A DNA stretch of 64,000 nucleotides from Mucilaginibacter gossypii. GTDB lineage: Bacteria > Bacteroidota > Bacteroidia > Sphingobacteriales > Sphingobacteriaceae. Positions 10,135-14,662 of this stretch are shown here, one piece after another (the stretch's first letter is position 1; every line of letters starts with the position of its first letter). Location of the stretch: positions 62,001-126,000 of the forward strand of contig NZ_FNCG01000004.1 in the NCBI RefSeq assembly GCF_900100945.1. Reading direction: 5' to 3'. Under the pieces are notes generated by a model, which ran no database searches, had not been told where the DNA came from, and saw only the letters and a list, made by a program, of their open reading frames with translations. Made by a program: the position numbers and the translations under genes.

Positions 10135-10920
10135 TTATTTGACTCGCTTGTAGATTTCTACAGATTGGCCATTTGTAGCACTATTAATCACCTGGGTATA
10201 TTGGTCATGACCATTCATCGTAACTTTAACAGTAAATTTGTTACCCTGAAGAAGCCGGTAATTTGATATTTGCTCTTCTTCCCTAAGCGTATCATTACTA
10301 AAAGTAAATACCCCGGTGCCAAACCCATTTTTAAAGATGGTTTTTTCCTTGTTTTGAGCGAGCCTGTGGACGAAAATAAAATGCCCTCCCCAAAATATTT
10401 TATACTGCGTTACATCAGTTGGGATTGTGTCTTTGCCTTTTATCGTGTAGGTTTTTTCCATTTTCCACAAGCCGTCAAGTACTGAGCTATCCGCCGGTGG
10501 GAGTTTTTTATAATCTTCCTTCAATGCATATTTTATACCTTTTACCGTGGCAAAGTCGGGAATCACTTGGCTATAACCATCAGGTTTTTTTGTAACCTCA
10601 AGATTATACGTTAGGGATGAGTCGAGCGCTCTGCTGGTGTAAATACTATGTTCTTTAAGTCGGTTAGCCGAGTCAAGTGTATAAGTGCCCACACCAAATC
10701 CAACAGATGAATCAGGAACTATACTGGCGTATAAATAATTATGATCTGTGTAGATTTTAATTTGCGTTCGTTTAATAACAGAGTCTTTGCCTCCTCGATC
10801 AAGCACTTGTTTTTCAAGTTCATATACACCCGAGAGGCCTGCCTCGGACGGCTTATCTTTTTTCTTACATCCAAAAATCAGGAAGCTAAATAAAGCTGCG
10901 AAAACTAAAATCTTATTCAT
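10135..10920 (-). CDS. Lipoprotein with two lipocalin-like repeats, function unknown
   Basis: A 261-aa secreted protein with a short signal peptide and lipobox (FLIFGC, Cys18), then Lys-rich linker KKKDKPSE. The mature part is an internal duplication: unit 1 (~29-122) has GVYELEKQV, IYTDHNYLYASI, GFGVGTYTLDS and DGYSQVIPD; unit 2 (~148-248) has GLWKMEKTY, IFWGGHFIFVHR, GFGTGVFTFSND and HDQYTQVIN. The unit pattern (W/Y-E-K opening, mid-strand aromatic, G-x-G-x-Y/F) resembles small lipocalin-like beta-barrel lipoproteins common in Bacteroidota. It is the first gene inside the left boundary of the tRNA-Phe island, so it may be cargo. No enzyme motif is seen. Confidence 0.6.
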   Translation of the reverse strand: MNKILVFAALFSFLIFGCKKKDKPSEAGLSGVYELEKQVLDRGGKDSVIKRTQIKIYTDHNYLYASIVPDSSVGFGVGTYTLDSANRLKEHSIYTSRALDSSLTYNLEVTKKPDGYSQVIPDFATVKGIKYALKEDYKKLPPADSSVLDGLWKMEKTYTIKGKDTIPTDVTQYKIFWGGHFIFVHRLAQNKEKTIFKNGFGTGVFTFSNDTLREEEQISNYRLLQGNKFTVKVTMNGHDQYTQVINSATNGQSVEIYKRVK

Positions 10921-11413
10921 AATGCTTAAGGTTTAATATGATATAAGGCTTTACTTCGTCTGGTAGCGGTTTTATTTGGCGGGCGACAACTTCTTGGTAA
11001 AAGAGCCAGGTAAAGACAAAATAATGCCTAAAATTTTATCACCATAAATAATGCAATTGGTTACATAAACTTACAAATAATATATATCATAAACAATTTG
11101 TTAGTGAATTATTAATATATTGTTAATGAGGTATTTAAATGGAAGTAAGGCTGTTTAATTAAATACAGTGCAAAGAGAAAGTCAATCAATATTTAGTTGG
11201 AGAGAAAAAGATGCCTTTAAACAGAAAGAAGGCCATTTTCTTATCGAAAAATGACCTTCTTTTTTTGCTGTGGTGCAGACTTTAGTTATAACACAACATT
11301 TCTTTTATGATTTAAAGAGATTGGCTAATTTGGACCTAAAATGAAATTGGTTCAAATTAGGCAAAATGCTATATAGTAATGCCTTTTTTTGAACAGAGAA
11401 AATCAATAAACAT
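10921..11413. other. AT-rich gap inside the island
   Basis: About 490 bases with no convincing ORF. It holds a strong bidirectional terminator hairpin (11225-11264) serving the RT gene that ends at 11414, and an AT-rich stretch (11040-11170) that probably carries the lipoprotein promoter. No RNA gene or repeat is recognised. Confidence 0.5.
11225..11264. terminator. Bidirectional terminator hairpin after the RT gene
   Basis: Long imperfect stem: AAGAAGG-CATTTTC on the left pairs with GAAAATG-CCTTCTT on the right across a short loop. T-runs lie on the right for + transcripts and CTTTCTGTTT follows on the minus strand. Located 150 bases past the RT stop. Confidence 0.65.
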
Positions 11414-12979
11414 TTAAAATTTATAGCGTTGTGAATAAATCTTAGCGTACTTCTGAACCGCTTGTTTAAAAATGGTTCTATGCCTCCTTGTCTGTTTTAC
11501 AATAGAATTAGTACCCATGATTTCGCTTGCTCGCTCTCCGTATTTAAAATAATTACTTCTAAATTCACCTTCATTCTTTTGAACCCTATAAACATAATCT
11601 CCAAATTGATTTGGAACAAGAGATTTAAAATTGCGCGTAATTGATTTTTTGTCAAGATCAATATTGGTGTATAATCTATAGAGCCTTCGATTGAAAAGAG
11701 CAGTATTGATCGTTTGATTGCCATAAGCTGATGCATATGCGCGCTTTGTTCGACTTTTCACAGCCAAAATCATCCGCCGATAGAACTTCGATAAGTTAGC
11801 AGATTTTATTAAAGTTTTATTTCCATAAAATTCAAACCCTAAATACGTCAAGGGACGGTTGTCAAAAAATCGCCCATTTTGCCACAGTTGTGAGGTTAAT
11901 TTTGAAACGCCCCGAACATCTTTATTCGAAAAGAAATATTCCTCGTTTTTACCAGGGCTTACGTTCAATTCAATGTCCTCCAAAGTATTGTCGACCAATT
12001 CCATGATCGCTTTTTTATGTTCCTCGCTACACACTATAATGATATCGTCGGAATAACGTCGATAGAACCCCTGCCTTTTTACAACAACCTCGTCAAGCAT
12101 AATTTTATCGAAGCTTAAAAGGTATAGGTTTGCCAATGTCGCACTTATCGGTAATCCCTGGGGAATGCCTACCATCTCACCCTGTTTGTTTCTAAAATTG
12201 TTTTTGTGAACCTTTAGTTTACCTTCTTTCAAAGTGTTCCGAAAATCGACTGGATCGTAAAAAAATGCCGATACGTTCGTTTTTCTTATTTCCGCAAGGT
12301 AACGTTCATCAAAACCAGCACGCCTATTAAAGTCATGTGATTTTAGACGGAGGTCATCGCGATAAATGAATGAAAATTTAGTTGCAGCTTTAAATACACT
12401 ATAATGATCAGTAGGTAATGTTGTGTTGTCAAGCAACTTTGCCCAAGCATTTTTTAAAACGCGATGGTTCATGTTGCTAAAAAATTTTTCTATATCATAT
12501 TTTAGTGCCCAGCACCCTTGCTCAGAGCGGCTTTCAATTTCTTTAAATACCTCGTGAGCAAAATCTATAGTGCCTTTGTTTTTACCTTTACGTACTGGAT
12601 GCGCAATCTGGATGTAAGCAGTAACACAGTCTGTTAACCCCTCGGTTTTTTTCAACTCATCCAAATATTTTAACTGTAGCCTTTCGCCATAATAGCCAAA
12701 AATCATGGCATCTATATGTGTAGCGTAATGGAGTGGCCGTAGTTTATAAGTTTGCTCACCGTTATGTGAATGGGCTCTTGCCGTACCTGGCTTATCGAAT
12801 TTATATCGCCTCACTTTGATATTAGTGTGTATCAAAGGAAAAAAAGCATGTTTTGCAACTGCTTCTTTATTTTTCACAAAACCCAAAATCTCTCCTCGCT
12901 TTTCACTTACATTAATTTGGTTTGTGAAATGCAGATAACCGCGATTGCGAAGCCATGTTGATTTACGTTTCGGTTTCAT
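11414..12979 (-). CDS. Reverse transcriptase, candidate defence-associated (unknown-group/retron-like) RT
   Basis: A 521-aa RNA-directed DNA polymerase. The catalytic aspartates are present: motif A ALKYDIEKFFSNMNH with Asp162, and YSDD at 309-312 in FYRRYSDDIIIV. Motif B is GIPQGLPISATLANLY (271-286), unlike group II introns, retrons (QGAPTSP) or DGRs (SQ). The upstream block RPLHYATHIDAMIFGYYGER (81-100) is a conserved part of this RT kind. About 180 residues follow the active site, rich in Arg/Lys, probably a thumb and RNA-binding tail. No maturase, endonuclease, nitrilase or protease domain is visible. The ATG directly follows a T7 run at the end of a putative ncRNA; there is no Shine-Dalgarno. 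The best fit is the unknown-group RTs that include antiviral DRT proteins; the exact class is undetermined. Confidence 0.85.
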   Translation of the reverse strand: MKPKRKSTWLRNRGYLHFTNQINVSEKRGEILGFVKNKEAVAKHAFFPLIHTNIKVRRYKFDKPGTARAHSHNGEQTYKLRPLHYATHIDAMIFGYYGERLQLKYLDELKKTEGLTDCVTAYIQIAHPVRKGKNKGTIDFAHEVFKEIESRSEQGCWALKYDIEKFFSNMNHRVLKNAWAKLLDNTTLPTDHYSVFKAATKFSFIYRDDLRLKSHDFNRRAGFDERYLAEIRKTNVSAFFYDPVDFRNTLKEGKLKVHKNNFRNKQGEMVGIPQGLPISATLANLYLLSFDKIMLDEVVVKRQGFYRRYSDDIIIVCSEEHKKAIMELVDNTLEDIELNVSPGKNEEYFFSNKDVRGVSKLTSQLWQNGRFFDNRPLTYLGFEFYGNKTLIKSANLSKFYRRMILAVKSRTKRAYASAYGNQTINTALFNRRLYRLYTNIDLDKKSITRNFKSLVPNQFGDYVYRVQKNEGEFRSNYFKYGERASEIMGTNSIVKQTRRHRTIFKQAVQKYAKIYSQRYKF

Positions 12980-13366
12980 AAAAAAAGGGACTTCGGATTA
13001 CGGCGTAGTTGATATCAGACCCGCATACACCCTTAGGCTGACCGTTACCCAATTTCTTGAGTCACGCCACTGTCTCGAATTATACAGTAAATAACCAAAC
13101 AACAGTTAAAGTAATGAAAGCACTACCTAACATATTGAAGATAATTGCTATATTTGTTCATAGTCTAACCATAGCGTTGCCGATGATGAGTTACCTCACT
13201 AAAGGTTCGCCAGTAACCTATAATCAGCGGGAGATGATTATCACCTCTGCTTCCTACAAGGCCGGTAATGACAATGTACATCCATCATGCACTATTTCGC
13301 ATGAAGTATCTTATGGTCAATTCCAAATGCAATAGATAAGGCCATTTCTTCCTCCGAAGTCCCTCC
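12980..13366 (-). ncRNA. Candidate structured RNA with complementary ends, upstream of the RT
   Basis: This RT-proximal stretch is closed by a perfect 12-bp inverted repeat: AGGGACTTCGGA at 12986-12997 and TCCGAAGTCCCT at 13353-13364. On the minus strand the first arm begins 2-3 bases past a TATCTTTG promoter box, and the second ends in seven T directly before the RT ATG. Inner hairpins include a bulged 7-bp stem (13036-13042 with 13061-13068) and GAGATGAT/ATCACCTC at 13231-13247. Complementary ends closing an RNA just upstream of the RT recall the a1/a2 stem of retron ncRNAs and the RNAs of DRT2/DRT9-type systems. The role as template or cofactor is inference. Confidence 0.6.
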
Positions 13367-13374
13367 CAAAGATA
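13367..13374 (-). promoter_or_regulatory. -7 box of the ncRNA/RT transcript
   Basis: Minus strand TATCTTTG, a full TAnnTTTG match. Expected transcription start is within the GGG of the first ncRNA arm (about 13363-13361). No clear -33 TTTG is seen. Confidence 0.6.
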
Positions 13375-13375
13375 T

Positions 13376-13383
13376 TATATTTG
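13376..13383 (+). promoter_or_regulatory. -7 box of the divergent WYL-like gene
   Basis: Plus strand TATATTTG, a full TAnnTTTG match, one base away from and back to back with the box of the ncRNA/RT unit. Expected start is near 13388-13390, giving a leader of only about a dozen bases before the ATG at 13401. Confidence 0.55.
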
Positions 13384-13400
13384 AGTTTATTTTTTTCCCT

Positions 13401-14519
13401 ATGCCTAAATTCACTATTGGGGATGCAGTGATTTTAAAAACGCACCCATTTCAAGAAACAATCCATTCCATCGTTATTAGCGGTGAATATCTGATGACGC
13501 CGCCAATAATGGTTGTTACAGAGGTTATCAATCATGATGAAGATGTTGATCCTCCAATTTTGAATAAGTACAAATGCGTATGGTTTTCAAGTAAAAAAAA
13601 TCAATTTCAGGAAAGTAATTTACTGGAAACTGATTTAAGAAGGCTTGAAATTGAAGGCACGGATTATGATAATTTCCTACCTGGTTCGTTAGTAGCATTA
13701 AAAACTTTACCAGTTGAATTGGGTAAAGAGAGAAGTTTTATGCATTCCGAGCTTTCGTCTAACTCCAGCAAGAAAACTAATACTCTAAGTGGTTTACTTT
13801 CATTTGTAAGCCCAATAATGACGCTTTGCGAAATTAAAGAACACGATTTGGAGAAAGGAAGCAAGGTAAGCCCCGATATTAAGCGCAAAAAAATCTATCC
13901 CGACTATGTTGCAAAGTGCAAGTGGTTCAATGCAGTTGGTGAAAAATTCTCTGAAGAACTGTTGCCGTTAGCCTCGCTAATGATCATCATGGAACCTGAC
14001 AATGAATTATTATCGATTTTGGATAAGGCAATAAAGGAAGAAACCTGTATAAATTGTTTAAATACGATTTTGAAACCTTTACAATTGTCAAATCGGAGCG
14101 GAATTTATTATATAACCTATTTCGATTATGTATTAAATAGAAACGTTAATAAAGAAGTTTCAGAGATAATTGATCCGATTGTAATATCTAATCCCTTTAA
14201 AACCCACGCTCCAATATTTAAGAAACGTAAGAAAGGCGGAAAAAGCATCCTAAAGCTTACTACCGAAGTTGAGACTCTTTTAAATAACGCCCTTAAAAGA
14301 AAAAGTAAAAACTACTTATTTATAAAATATCAAGATCGATTTGGGCAGATAACAACACGGACTTTAAGTAATTATGAGGTGATTGAGGGAGAGGATGATT
14401 TGTCACCAACAAAAGATCTTGTGAAATACTTAAGAGCATTCTGCCATCTTAGAGGATCGGATAGAAATTTTCGGGTAAAATCGATTATCGAAATTAGTGA
14501 ATTGAGGTTAGCATTTTAA
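13401..14519 (+). CDS. Protein with two DUF2158-like modules and a C-terminal WYL-like domain
   Basis: A 372-aa soluble protein. Two related N-terminal modules are visible by eye: unit 1 (7-79) has GDAVILKTHPF, PPIMVVTEVI, YKCVWF and FQESNL; unit 2 (95-194) has GSLVALKTLPV, SPIMTLCEIK, AKCKWF and FSEELL. The order G-(D)-x-V-x-LK...P-x-M...C-x-WF is that of DUF2158/YodC-type small proteins. The last 80 residues (LFIKYQDRFGQITTRTL, YLRAFCHLRGSDRNFRVKSI) match the WYL-domain pattern of Tyr-rich strands then a CHLR...R-F motif, here with Cys348, His349, Arg351, Arg355 and Phe357. WYL domains bind nucleotide or nucleic-acid ligands and control several defence islands. Divergent from an RT over a shared promoter, so co-function is likely; its biochemical role is unknown. 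Confidence 0.6.
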   Translation: MPKFTIGDAVILKTHPFQETIHSIVISGEYLMTPPIMVVTEVINHDEDVDPPILNKYKCVWFSSKKNQFQESNLLETDLRRLEIEGTDYDNFLPGSLVALKTLPVELGKERSFMHSELSSNSSKKTNTLSGLLSFVSPIMTLCEIKEHDLEKGSKVSPDIKRKKIYPDYVAKCKWFNAVGEKFSEELLPLASLMIIMEPDNELLSILDKAIKEETCINCLNTILKPLQLSNRSGIYYITYFDYVLNRNVNKEVSEIIDPIVISNPFKTHAPIFKKRKKGGKSILKLTTEVETLLNNALKRKSKNYLFIKYQDRFGQITTRTLSNYEVIEGEDDLSPTKDLVKYLRAFCHLRGSDRNFRVKSIIEISELRLAF

Positions 14520-14542
14520 ACGCTATAGCTTGCGACAGCAAC

Positions 14543-14571
14543 GCCCGTCTGCCGCGTCGCGGCAGACGGGC
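14543..14571. repeat. GC-rich perfect 13-bp hairpin
   Basis: Arms GCCCGTCTGCCGC and GCGGCAGACGGGC around GTC, in an otherwise AT-rich island, 23 bases after the WYL-like gene. There is no T-run, so it may be a REP-like palindrome acting as a transcript end-block rather than a classic terminator. Confidence 0.6.
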
Positions 14572-14594
14572 ACGAGATATATATTTAATAAAAA

Positions 14595-14621
14595 AAGCCC
14601 TCAGAAAATCTCTGAAGGCTT
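14595..14621 (-). terminator. Terminator of tRNA-Phe (element-derived)
   Basis: Stem AAGCC-TCAGA (14595-14605) with TCTGA-GGCTT (14611-14621), one mismatch, followed in the minus direction by TTTTTTATTAA. It differs from the terminator beside the displaced tRNA fragment at 10047-10076, as expected if the element brought its own tRNA 3' end and terminator. Confidence 0.6.
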
Positions 14622-14662
14622 AATAAATTTTTTTTAATAATTTGACCATATGGTCTTTTAAG

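What the first reader, a model, noticed from the sequence alone, without database searches (positions are those of the whole stretch)
11414..13366. Candidate undescribed RT + structured RNA system
The RT has a YSDD active site and QGLPIS motif, which differ from group II introns, canonical retrons and DGRs. It is preceded by a gene-free segment closed by a 12-bp perfect inverted repeat. One arm coincides with the predicted transcription start and the other with a T7 run abutting the RT ATG. Retron and DRT2/DRT9 RTs are known to use an RNA encoded just upstream; here the fit of promoter, closing stem and start codon is very tight.
Basis: partly seen in the sequence, partly recalled or inferred. 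Interest (0 to 1): 0.9.

Follow-up and report, generated by a model that had tools for sequence, protein, structure and literature searches.

The report
DRT2 reverse transcriptase with hidden gene
This is a divergent member of a known bacterial anti-phage system (DRT2) in which a reverse transcriptase is thought to copy a small RNA round and round; the RNA here carries a hidden 65-codon stop-free reading frame that only becomes a gene after that copying, and its clade always carries a neighbouring WYL-domain gene.

Summary
The RT (11414-12979, -) is a DRT2/UG2 enzyme (PADLOC Drt2 5e-125; KpnDRT2 8e-44), not an undescribed kind. Between a covarying hairpin and a conserved 3' scaffold lies a 195-nt segment (13081-13275). 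A short sequence (ATT) at its 5' end recurs just past its 3' end; other lineages have other, but again matching, motifs. Its length is a multiple of three in 22/22 tabulated relatives, while flanking distances are not. Its reverse complement, joined head to tail, has exactly one stop-free frame in 23/23. That is the published DRT2 design, in which rolling-circle reverse transcription builds a 'neo' gene. Here the repeat is 65 aa (KpnDRT2: 40) and the jump motif is not ACA. All 25 loci of this RT clade (support 100/99) carry a divergent WYL-YodC gene; none of 20 other DRT2 loci do. A sister subclade (150-162 nt) and a separate clade without WYL (108-114 nt) extend the neo pattern. The module is a 3.4-kb islet with empty sites in related species. 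Unresolved: the neo promoter, the WYL protein's role, and all experimental steps.

The parts
11414..12979 (-). DRT2 (UG2) reverse transcriptase, 521 aa; motif A Asp, YSDD and QGLPISA conserved
   Evidence: PADLOC Drt2 5.3e-125, NCBIfam Drt2 8.3e-99 (331.6 bits, under its 390 cut-off), PDB 9c0i KpnDRT2 7.7e-44; alignment
12986..13363 (-). ncRNA (predicted extent, about 377 nt)
   Evidence: conserved promoter box, closing stem, hairpin and scaffold in relatives; ends not shown by experiment
13367..13374 (-). ncRNA promoter -7 box TATCTTTG (Bacteroidota TAnnTTTG type)
   Evidence: same box just before the stem in nearly all clade relatives
13353..13363 (-). closing stem, 5' arm
   Evidence: compensatory changes, arm-swap test
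12987..12997 (-). closing stem, 3' arm, followed by T7 and the RT ATG
13286..13303 (-). hairpin CATGCGAAATAGTGCATG just 5' of the template
   Evidence: same position, different stem sequence in relatives
13272..13275 (-). 5' jump motif (ATTG), first bases of the template
   Evidence: matches the 3' motif in each relative although the motif differs between lineages
13077..13080 (-). 3' jump motif (ATTC; shares ATT with the 5' motif)
13081..13275 (-). inferred reverse-transcription template, 195 nt
   Evidence: length a multiple of 3 in 22/22, flanks not
13081..13275 (+). neo repeat unit, 65 codons without stop when concatenated; candidate start ATG at 13114
13149..13156 (+). TATATTTG inside the neo unit, possible neo promoter -7 (tentative)
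   Evidence: aligned with TA-n-n-TT in relatives, with TTG 20 nt upstream in several of them but not here; could be coding constraint instead
13042..13067 (-). conserved 3' scaffold GCGTGACTCAAGAAATTGGGTAACGG
   Evidence: GACTCA...TGGGT conserved over the WYL clade
13401..14519 (+). divergent WYL-YodC gene, 372 aa: barrel-rich YodC-like N-terminal part and C-terminal WYL domain
   Evidence: PADLOC RTasWYL-YodC 1.4e-102; 25/25 in the clade, 0/20 outside; fold
11263..14661 (.). whole islet, inserted between 11262 and 14662
   Evidence: three genomes of the same genus join the two flanks with 6 nt between (L052, L053, L057)

Best explanation
A DRT2 anti-phage system of a WYL-linked Bacteroidota clade. 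The ncRNA is transcribed from about 13363 towards the RT and is held closed by its terminal stem; its 3' scaffold docks the RT (inferred from KpnDRT2). On infection the RT copies the 195-nt template from its 3' end; when it reaches the ATT(G) at the 5' end, the cDNA end re-anneals to the matching ATT at the 3' end, so that copies are joined head to tail. The double-stranded concatemer contains one endless reading frame (65 aa per turn, hydrophobic), which is transcribed and translated into a Neo-type growth-arresting protein. The divergent WYL-YodC protein is a clade-specific partner, most likely a regulator, perhaps one that senses ssDNA. Shown from sequence: RT family, RNA, template ends, frame closure, WYL linkage. 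Inferred: cDNA synthesis, jumping, trigger, toxicity, WYL function.
For: RT family. RNA with covarying closing stem. Template: 15/15 clade-A and 8/8 clade-B relatives have lengths of 150-195 nt divisible by 3; flanking distances are spread over all three classes. One stop-free cDNA frame in 23/23; a shuffled template has one in 1-10% of cases. Matching motifs at both ends, 4.3 nt on average against 1.9 for ends of different relatives, with different motifs by lineage: ATTG, TATCA, AATCA, TTTA. In-frame ATG 15-45 nt after the junction in 27/27; hydrophobic, mean GRAVY 0.73 against 0.16 in shuffles. Positive control: a KpnDRT2-like plasmid locus gives a 111-nt unit, one open frame, TTGACA-17-TATAAT across the junction. 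Clade C (no WYL) gives 108-114 nt units with a Bacteroidota-like promoter across the junction.
Against: No junction-spanning promoter is recognisable in the WYL clade, unlike KpnDRT2. The direct repeat in the window itself is only 3 nt. Codon-position bias of substitutions is weak. The motif pair was found by eye: a first pair (TGG/TAG) failed, and for L028 and L016 the register was moved by one base. Templates of L003 and L005 in the same clade were not resolved. Relatives are not independent, so the joint probability is not a real p-value. No experiment.
Confidence: 0.86

Rival explanations
1. The RNA guides or primes some other product, such as a homopolymer or short tandem repeat (DRT9/DRT10 style) or an msDNA (retron style), and the open antisense frame is incidental.
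For: Class 2 UG RTs are known to make such products from partner RNAs (PMC12483538, PMC12632851).
Against: Drt9 and UG17 profiles score far lower (1.5e-11 and 4e-26 against 5e-125). An incidental frame would not close in frame over the jump sites in 23/23 relatives of six different lengths while the flanks vary freely.
Confidence: 0.06
2. The antisense frame (13114 to 13335, +) is an ordinary small gene, for instance a toxin held down by the ncRNA as antisense RNA, read directly from the genome.
For: In the linear genome the frame runs to a stop at 13335 and has an ATG; a possible -7 box (13149-13156) lies on that strand.
Against: The frame is also open upstream of the ATG back to the template end in all relatives, and its closure over the template ends has no reason in an ordinary gene. 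The candidate promoter lies downstream of the ATG.
Confidence: 0.04
3. DRT2 with neo, but the WYL-YodC protein is an effector, an enhancer of the RT complex or an immunity partner rather than a transcriptional regulator.
For: No DNA-binding winged helix is evident; the N-terminal half is built of small barrels with weak resemblance to tudor domains, which could bind protein or nucleic acid.
Against: The best matches of the C-terminal half are WYL regulators (PafBC, CapW, DriD, BrxR), though at weak E-values; a divergent gene next to the operon promoter is a usual place for a regulator (general knowledge).
Confidence: 0.3

Closest known systems
KpnDRT2 (Klebsiella pneumoniae DRT2; PMC11100668, PMC12039810)
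   Same: RT family, upstream ncRNA, central template flanked by a short repeated motif, concatemer with one stop-free frame on the cDNA strand, hydrophobic Neo, ATG soon after the junction
   Different: unit 195 nt/65 aa instead of 120 nt/40 aa; ATT(G) instead of ACA; no recognisable split promoter at the junction; extra divergent WYL-YodC gene; YSDD instead of YCDD; RT about 95 aa longer
DRT9 and DRT10 (UG17)
   Same: Class 2 UG RT with partner ncRNA
   Different: their RT profiles score far lower here; their products are homopolymers or short tandem repeats (PMC12483538, PMC12632851), not a gene-length unit
WYL regulators BrxR, CapW, DriD, PafBC
   Same: WYL domain; BrxR and CapW also sit beside defence operons (general knowledge)
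   Different: YodC/SH3-like barrels in place of a winged helix-turn-helix

Membership tests
DRT2 | RT of the UG2/Drt2 family | tested here: met
   NCBI's own cut-off for the name is not reached (331.6 of 390 bits)
DRT2 | structured ncRNA encoded just upstream of the RT | tested here: met
DRT2 | template flanked by a short repeated motif that lets the RT jump back | tested here: met
   motif ATT here, not ACA; a KpnDRT2 relative seems to use AGAT, so ACA itself is not defining
DRT2 | repeat unit divisible by 3 with one stop-free frame on the cDNA strand | tested here: met
DRT2 | promoter rebuilt across the repeat junction | tested here: inconclusive
   none recognisable in this clade; present in clade C and in the control
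DRT2 | concatemeric cDNA, Neo toxicity, phage defence | not testable with these tools
   needs experiment
DRT9 / DRT10 | RT of the Drt9 / UG17 family | tested here: not met
   weak secondary hits only
retron | retron RT family | tested here: not met
   only retron profile hit is St85, 47 bits against cut-off 235
retron | msr-msd RNA with branching G | not tested
   RT test already negative
group II intron | intron RNA and maturase RT | tested here: not met
   no Rfam match in 10900-13500; maturase profile 68.8 bits against 300

The most novel reading that the evidence does not exclude
A DRT2 subtype with a different safety logic: the neo promoter is intact but lies downstream of the neo start codon within the repeat, so that only a second joined copy puts a promoter before the ATG; and the partner WYL-YodC protein senses the RT's single-stranded cDNA and switches the system or neo on.
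Probability: 0.25. Interest if true: 0.78.

Novelty: new variant of a known kind. Interest (0 to 1): 0.6.

Why it matters
The preprint that described Neo reported that in more divergent DRT2 clades the ncRNA could be modelled but Neo annotation was more challenging, and left open that these work by other mechanisms (PMC11100668). Here template and Neo become readable in a WYL-linked clade and in a further clade without WYL, with repeat units of 36 to 65 aa and changed jump motifs. That suggests that building a hidden gene is a general DRT2 mechanism, that the jump rule is 'the same short sequence at both ends' rather than ACA, and it gives exact, testable coordinates. It also defines a two-gene DRT2 subtype with a constant WYL partner, which opens the question how these systems are switched.

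Tried and rejected
Template ends at TGG/TAG motifs: lengths not constant modulo 3, rejected. ACA motifs in the Photobacterium control: no hit; the control was resolved with the published promoter spacing instead and gave AGAT. Bacteroidota promoter at the junction in the WYL clade: none consistent. Viral contigs: no relative. Rfam: no match. Codon-position substitution bias: weak, not used as evidence. Template of L003: no consistent solution. A combined alignment of closing-stem arms was misaligned by MAFFT; pairs were counted in a fixed register instead. Paper searches for a description of the WYL-YodC link found none in the held library; I did not find the original UG/Abi survey or the final journal version of the Neo preprint there, so prior mention cannot be excluded.

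Full report
WHAT IS THERE. The 521-aa ORF at 11414-12979(-) is a reverse transcriptase. Libraries agree on DRT2: PADLOC Drt2 5.3e-125 (next RT family, UG17, 4e-26), NCBIfam Drt2 8.3e-99 but at 331.6 bits, under the 390-bit naming cut-off, and the solved KpnDRT2 chains (9c0i and others) at 7.7e-44 by sequence. The YSDD box is shared by the Bacteroidota DRT2s aligned; KpnDRT2 has YCDD. The genome carries a single copy. The nearest named relative is in Mucilaginibacter pallidiroseus; the window genome is probably also Mucilaginibacter, because a genome placed in its own genus (G433) has a match of the same 76% identity.

RELATIVES. DRT2 relatives were collected from the phylum, genus, family and class and 45 loci were oriented on the RT start. 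A maximum-likelihood tree of 47 RTs puts the window's RT in a group of 25 (support 100/99), apart from KpnDRT2 and its Photobacterium relative.

THE RNA. Own arms pair better than swapped arms (-22.8 against -13.3 kcal/mol). Three apparent failures (L017, L034, L035) have the 3' arm overlapping the RT start as I had annotated it. Double compensatory changes are seen at pairs 4, 6 and 9 among L001/L015/L002 and at 4, 9 and 10 among L018/L016/L032/L033. A second hairpin just before the template keeps its pairing with changed sequence, and GACTCA...TGGGT is the conserved 3' scaffold.

THE TEMPLATE AND NEO. In the five closest relatives one antisense frame is open over about 290 nt of the RNA gene, and the longest open frame is antisense in most other relatives too. 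Published DRT2 work predicts a template bounded by a repeated short motif, with length divisible by 3 and one endless frame on the cDNA strand (PMC12039810, PMC11100668). A first candidate motif pair failed. The second, ATTG just after the hairpin and ATT(G/C) just before the scaffold, gave 192-195 nt and a stop-free frame in ten of twelve relatives at once; L016 and L028 needed a register one base earlier (ATTTG), giving 195 and 192. L030 and L029/L031, which lack ATTG, have TATCA...TATCA (180 nt) and AATCA...AATCA (192 nt) at the same places, all closing in frame. A sister subclade (L036-L042, L004) has TTTA...TTTA with 150, 153 or 162 nt, 8/8 closing in frame. Controls: template length is 0 modulo 3 in 22/22 tabulated loci, while the 5' and 3' flanking distances fall into all classes (12/5/5 and 10/7/5); the two motifs of one locus match over 4.3 nt on average, those of different loci over 1.9. 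Each template has exactly one open frame on the cDNA strand; dinucleotide shuffles have one in 1-10% of cases. All have an in-frame ATG shortly after the junction, and most encode peptides more hydrophobic than shuffles, the window's own only slightly so. The same logic applied to a KpnDRT2-like plasmid locus from Photobacterium recovered the known layout, including TTGACA-17-TATAAT over the junction. For the window the Neo unit is YTVNNQTTVKVMKALPNILKIIAIFVHSLTIALPMMSYLTKGSPVTYNQREMIITSASYKAGNDN (13081-13275, +).

PROMOTER OF NEO. In clade C (L019-L021, L044; no WYL gene; 108-114 nt units) a TTG-N19/20-TA(T/A)CTTTA element spans the junction just before the ATG, a Bacteroidota counterpart of the KpnDRT2 split promoter, though one sequence at a time it is not rare in shuffles. 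In the WYL clade nothing of the kind is visible. A TTG-N20-TA(A/T)ATT(T/C)G element lies inside the repeat, after the ATG, in several lineages; the window has the -7 half only. If it is the promoter, concatenation would still be required to place it before an ATG. The same bases encode a conserved I-F-V motif, so this stays a conjecture.

THE PARTNER GENE. A divergent gene (13401-14519, +; PADLOC RTasWYL-YodC 1.4e-102) starts close to the ncRNA promoter box in the clade. A homologue is present in 25/25 loci of the RT clade and in 0/20 others, one change on the tree. Its AlphaFold model (pLDDT 79, pTM 0.64) has strand-rich N-terminal domains and a C-terminal WYL part; Foldseek gives PafBC, CapW, DriD and BrxR for the WYL half with high probability but weak E-values, proteins that are, from general knowledge, ssDNA- or ligand-gated regulators. 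PADLOC's model name shows that an RT association of this gene was known in 2023.

MOBILITY. In three genomes of the same genus the sequences at 11262 and 14662 of the window lie 6 nt apart (L052, L053, L057), so RT, ncRNA and WYL gene form one 3.4-kb islet without an integrase gene. M. pallidiroseus carries the module next to the same neighbour.

LIMITS. Everything beyond sequence anatomy is inferred from KpnDRT2. The relatives are related to each other, so the product of probabilities is not a p-value. L003 and L005 of the clade were not resolved. I did not find the 2022 UG/Abi survey or the final Neo paper in the literature library, so prior description of this clade's Neo or WYL link cannot be ruled out.

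Noticed in passing
L019, L020, L021, L044 (clade C DRT2, no WYL gene): 108-114 nt repeat units with an (A)ATTTC jump motif and a Bacteroidota-type promoter (TTG-N19/20-TA[TA]CTTTA) spanning the junction just before the ATG: a counterpart of the KpnDRT2 split promoter.
   Followed up: partly
L008 (-283..-121), L043 (-254..-122), relative to RT ATG: Possible neo units of 162 nt (TAATT) and 132 nt (TAATAT) in a fourth DRT2 group; seen in an automated scan only.
   Followed up: no
window 13367-13383: CAAATATA-ATATCTTTG: the ncRNA -7 box and a TATATTTG on the other strand stand back to back, 17 nt before the WYL ATG; also in L013, L015 and L028. Possible overlapping divergent promoters or an operator.
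   Followed up: partly
window 12980-12986: T-run directly after the closing stem, kept in most near relatives; stem plus T-run could act as a long-range terminator or processing site separating ncRNA from RT mRNA.
   Followed up: no
L048 (Photobacterium damselae plasmid pPHDD1), upstream of 1980: KpnDRT2-like system whose jump motif appears to be AGAT rather than ACA.
   Followed up: partly
L003 and L005, upstream of the RT: WYL-clade DRT2 loci whose template could not be placed; either a different motif or a different layout.
   Followed up: partly
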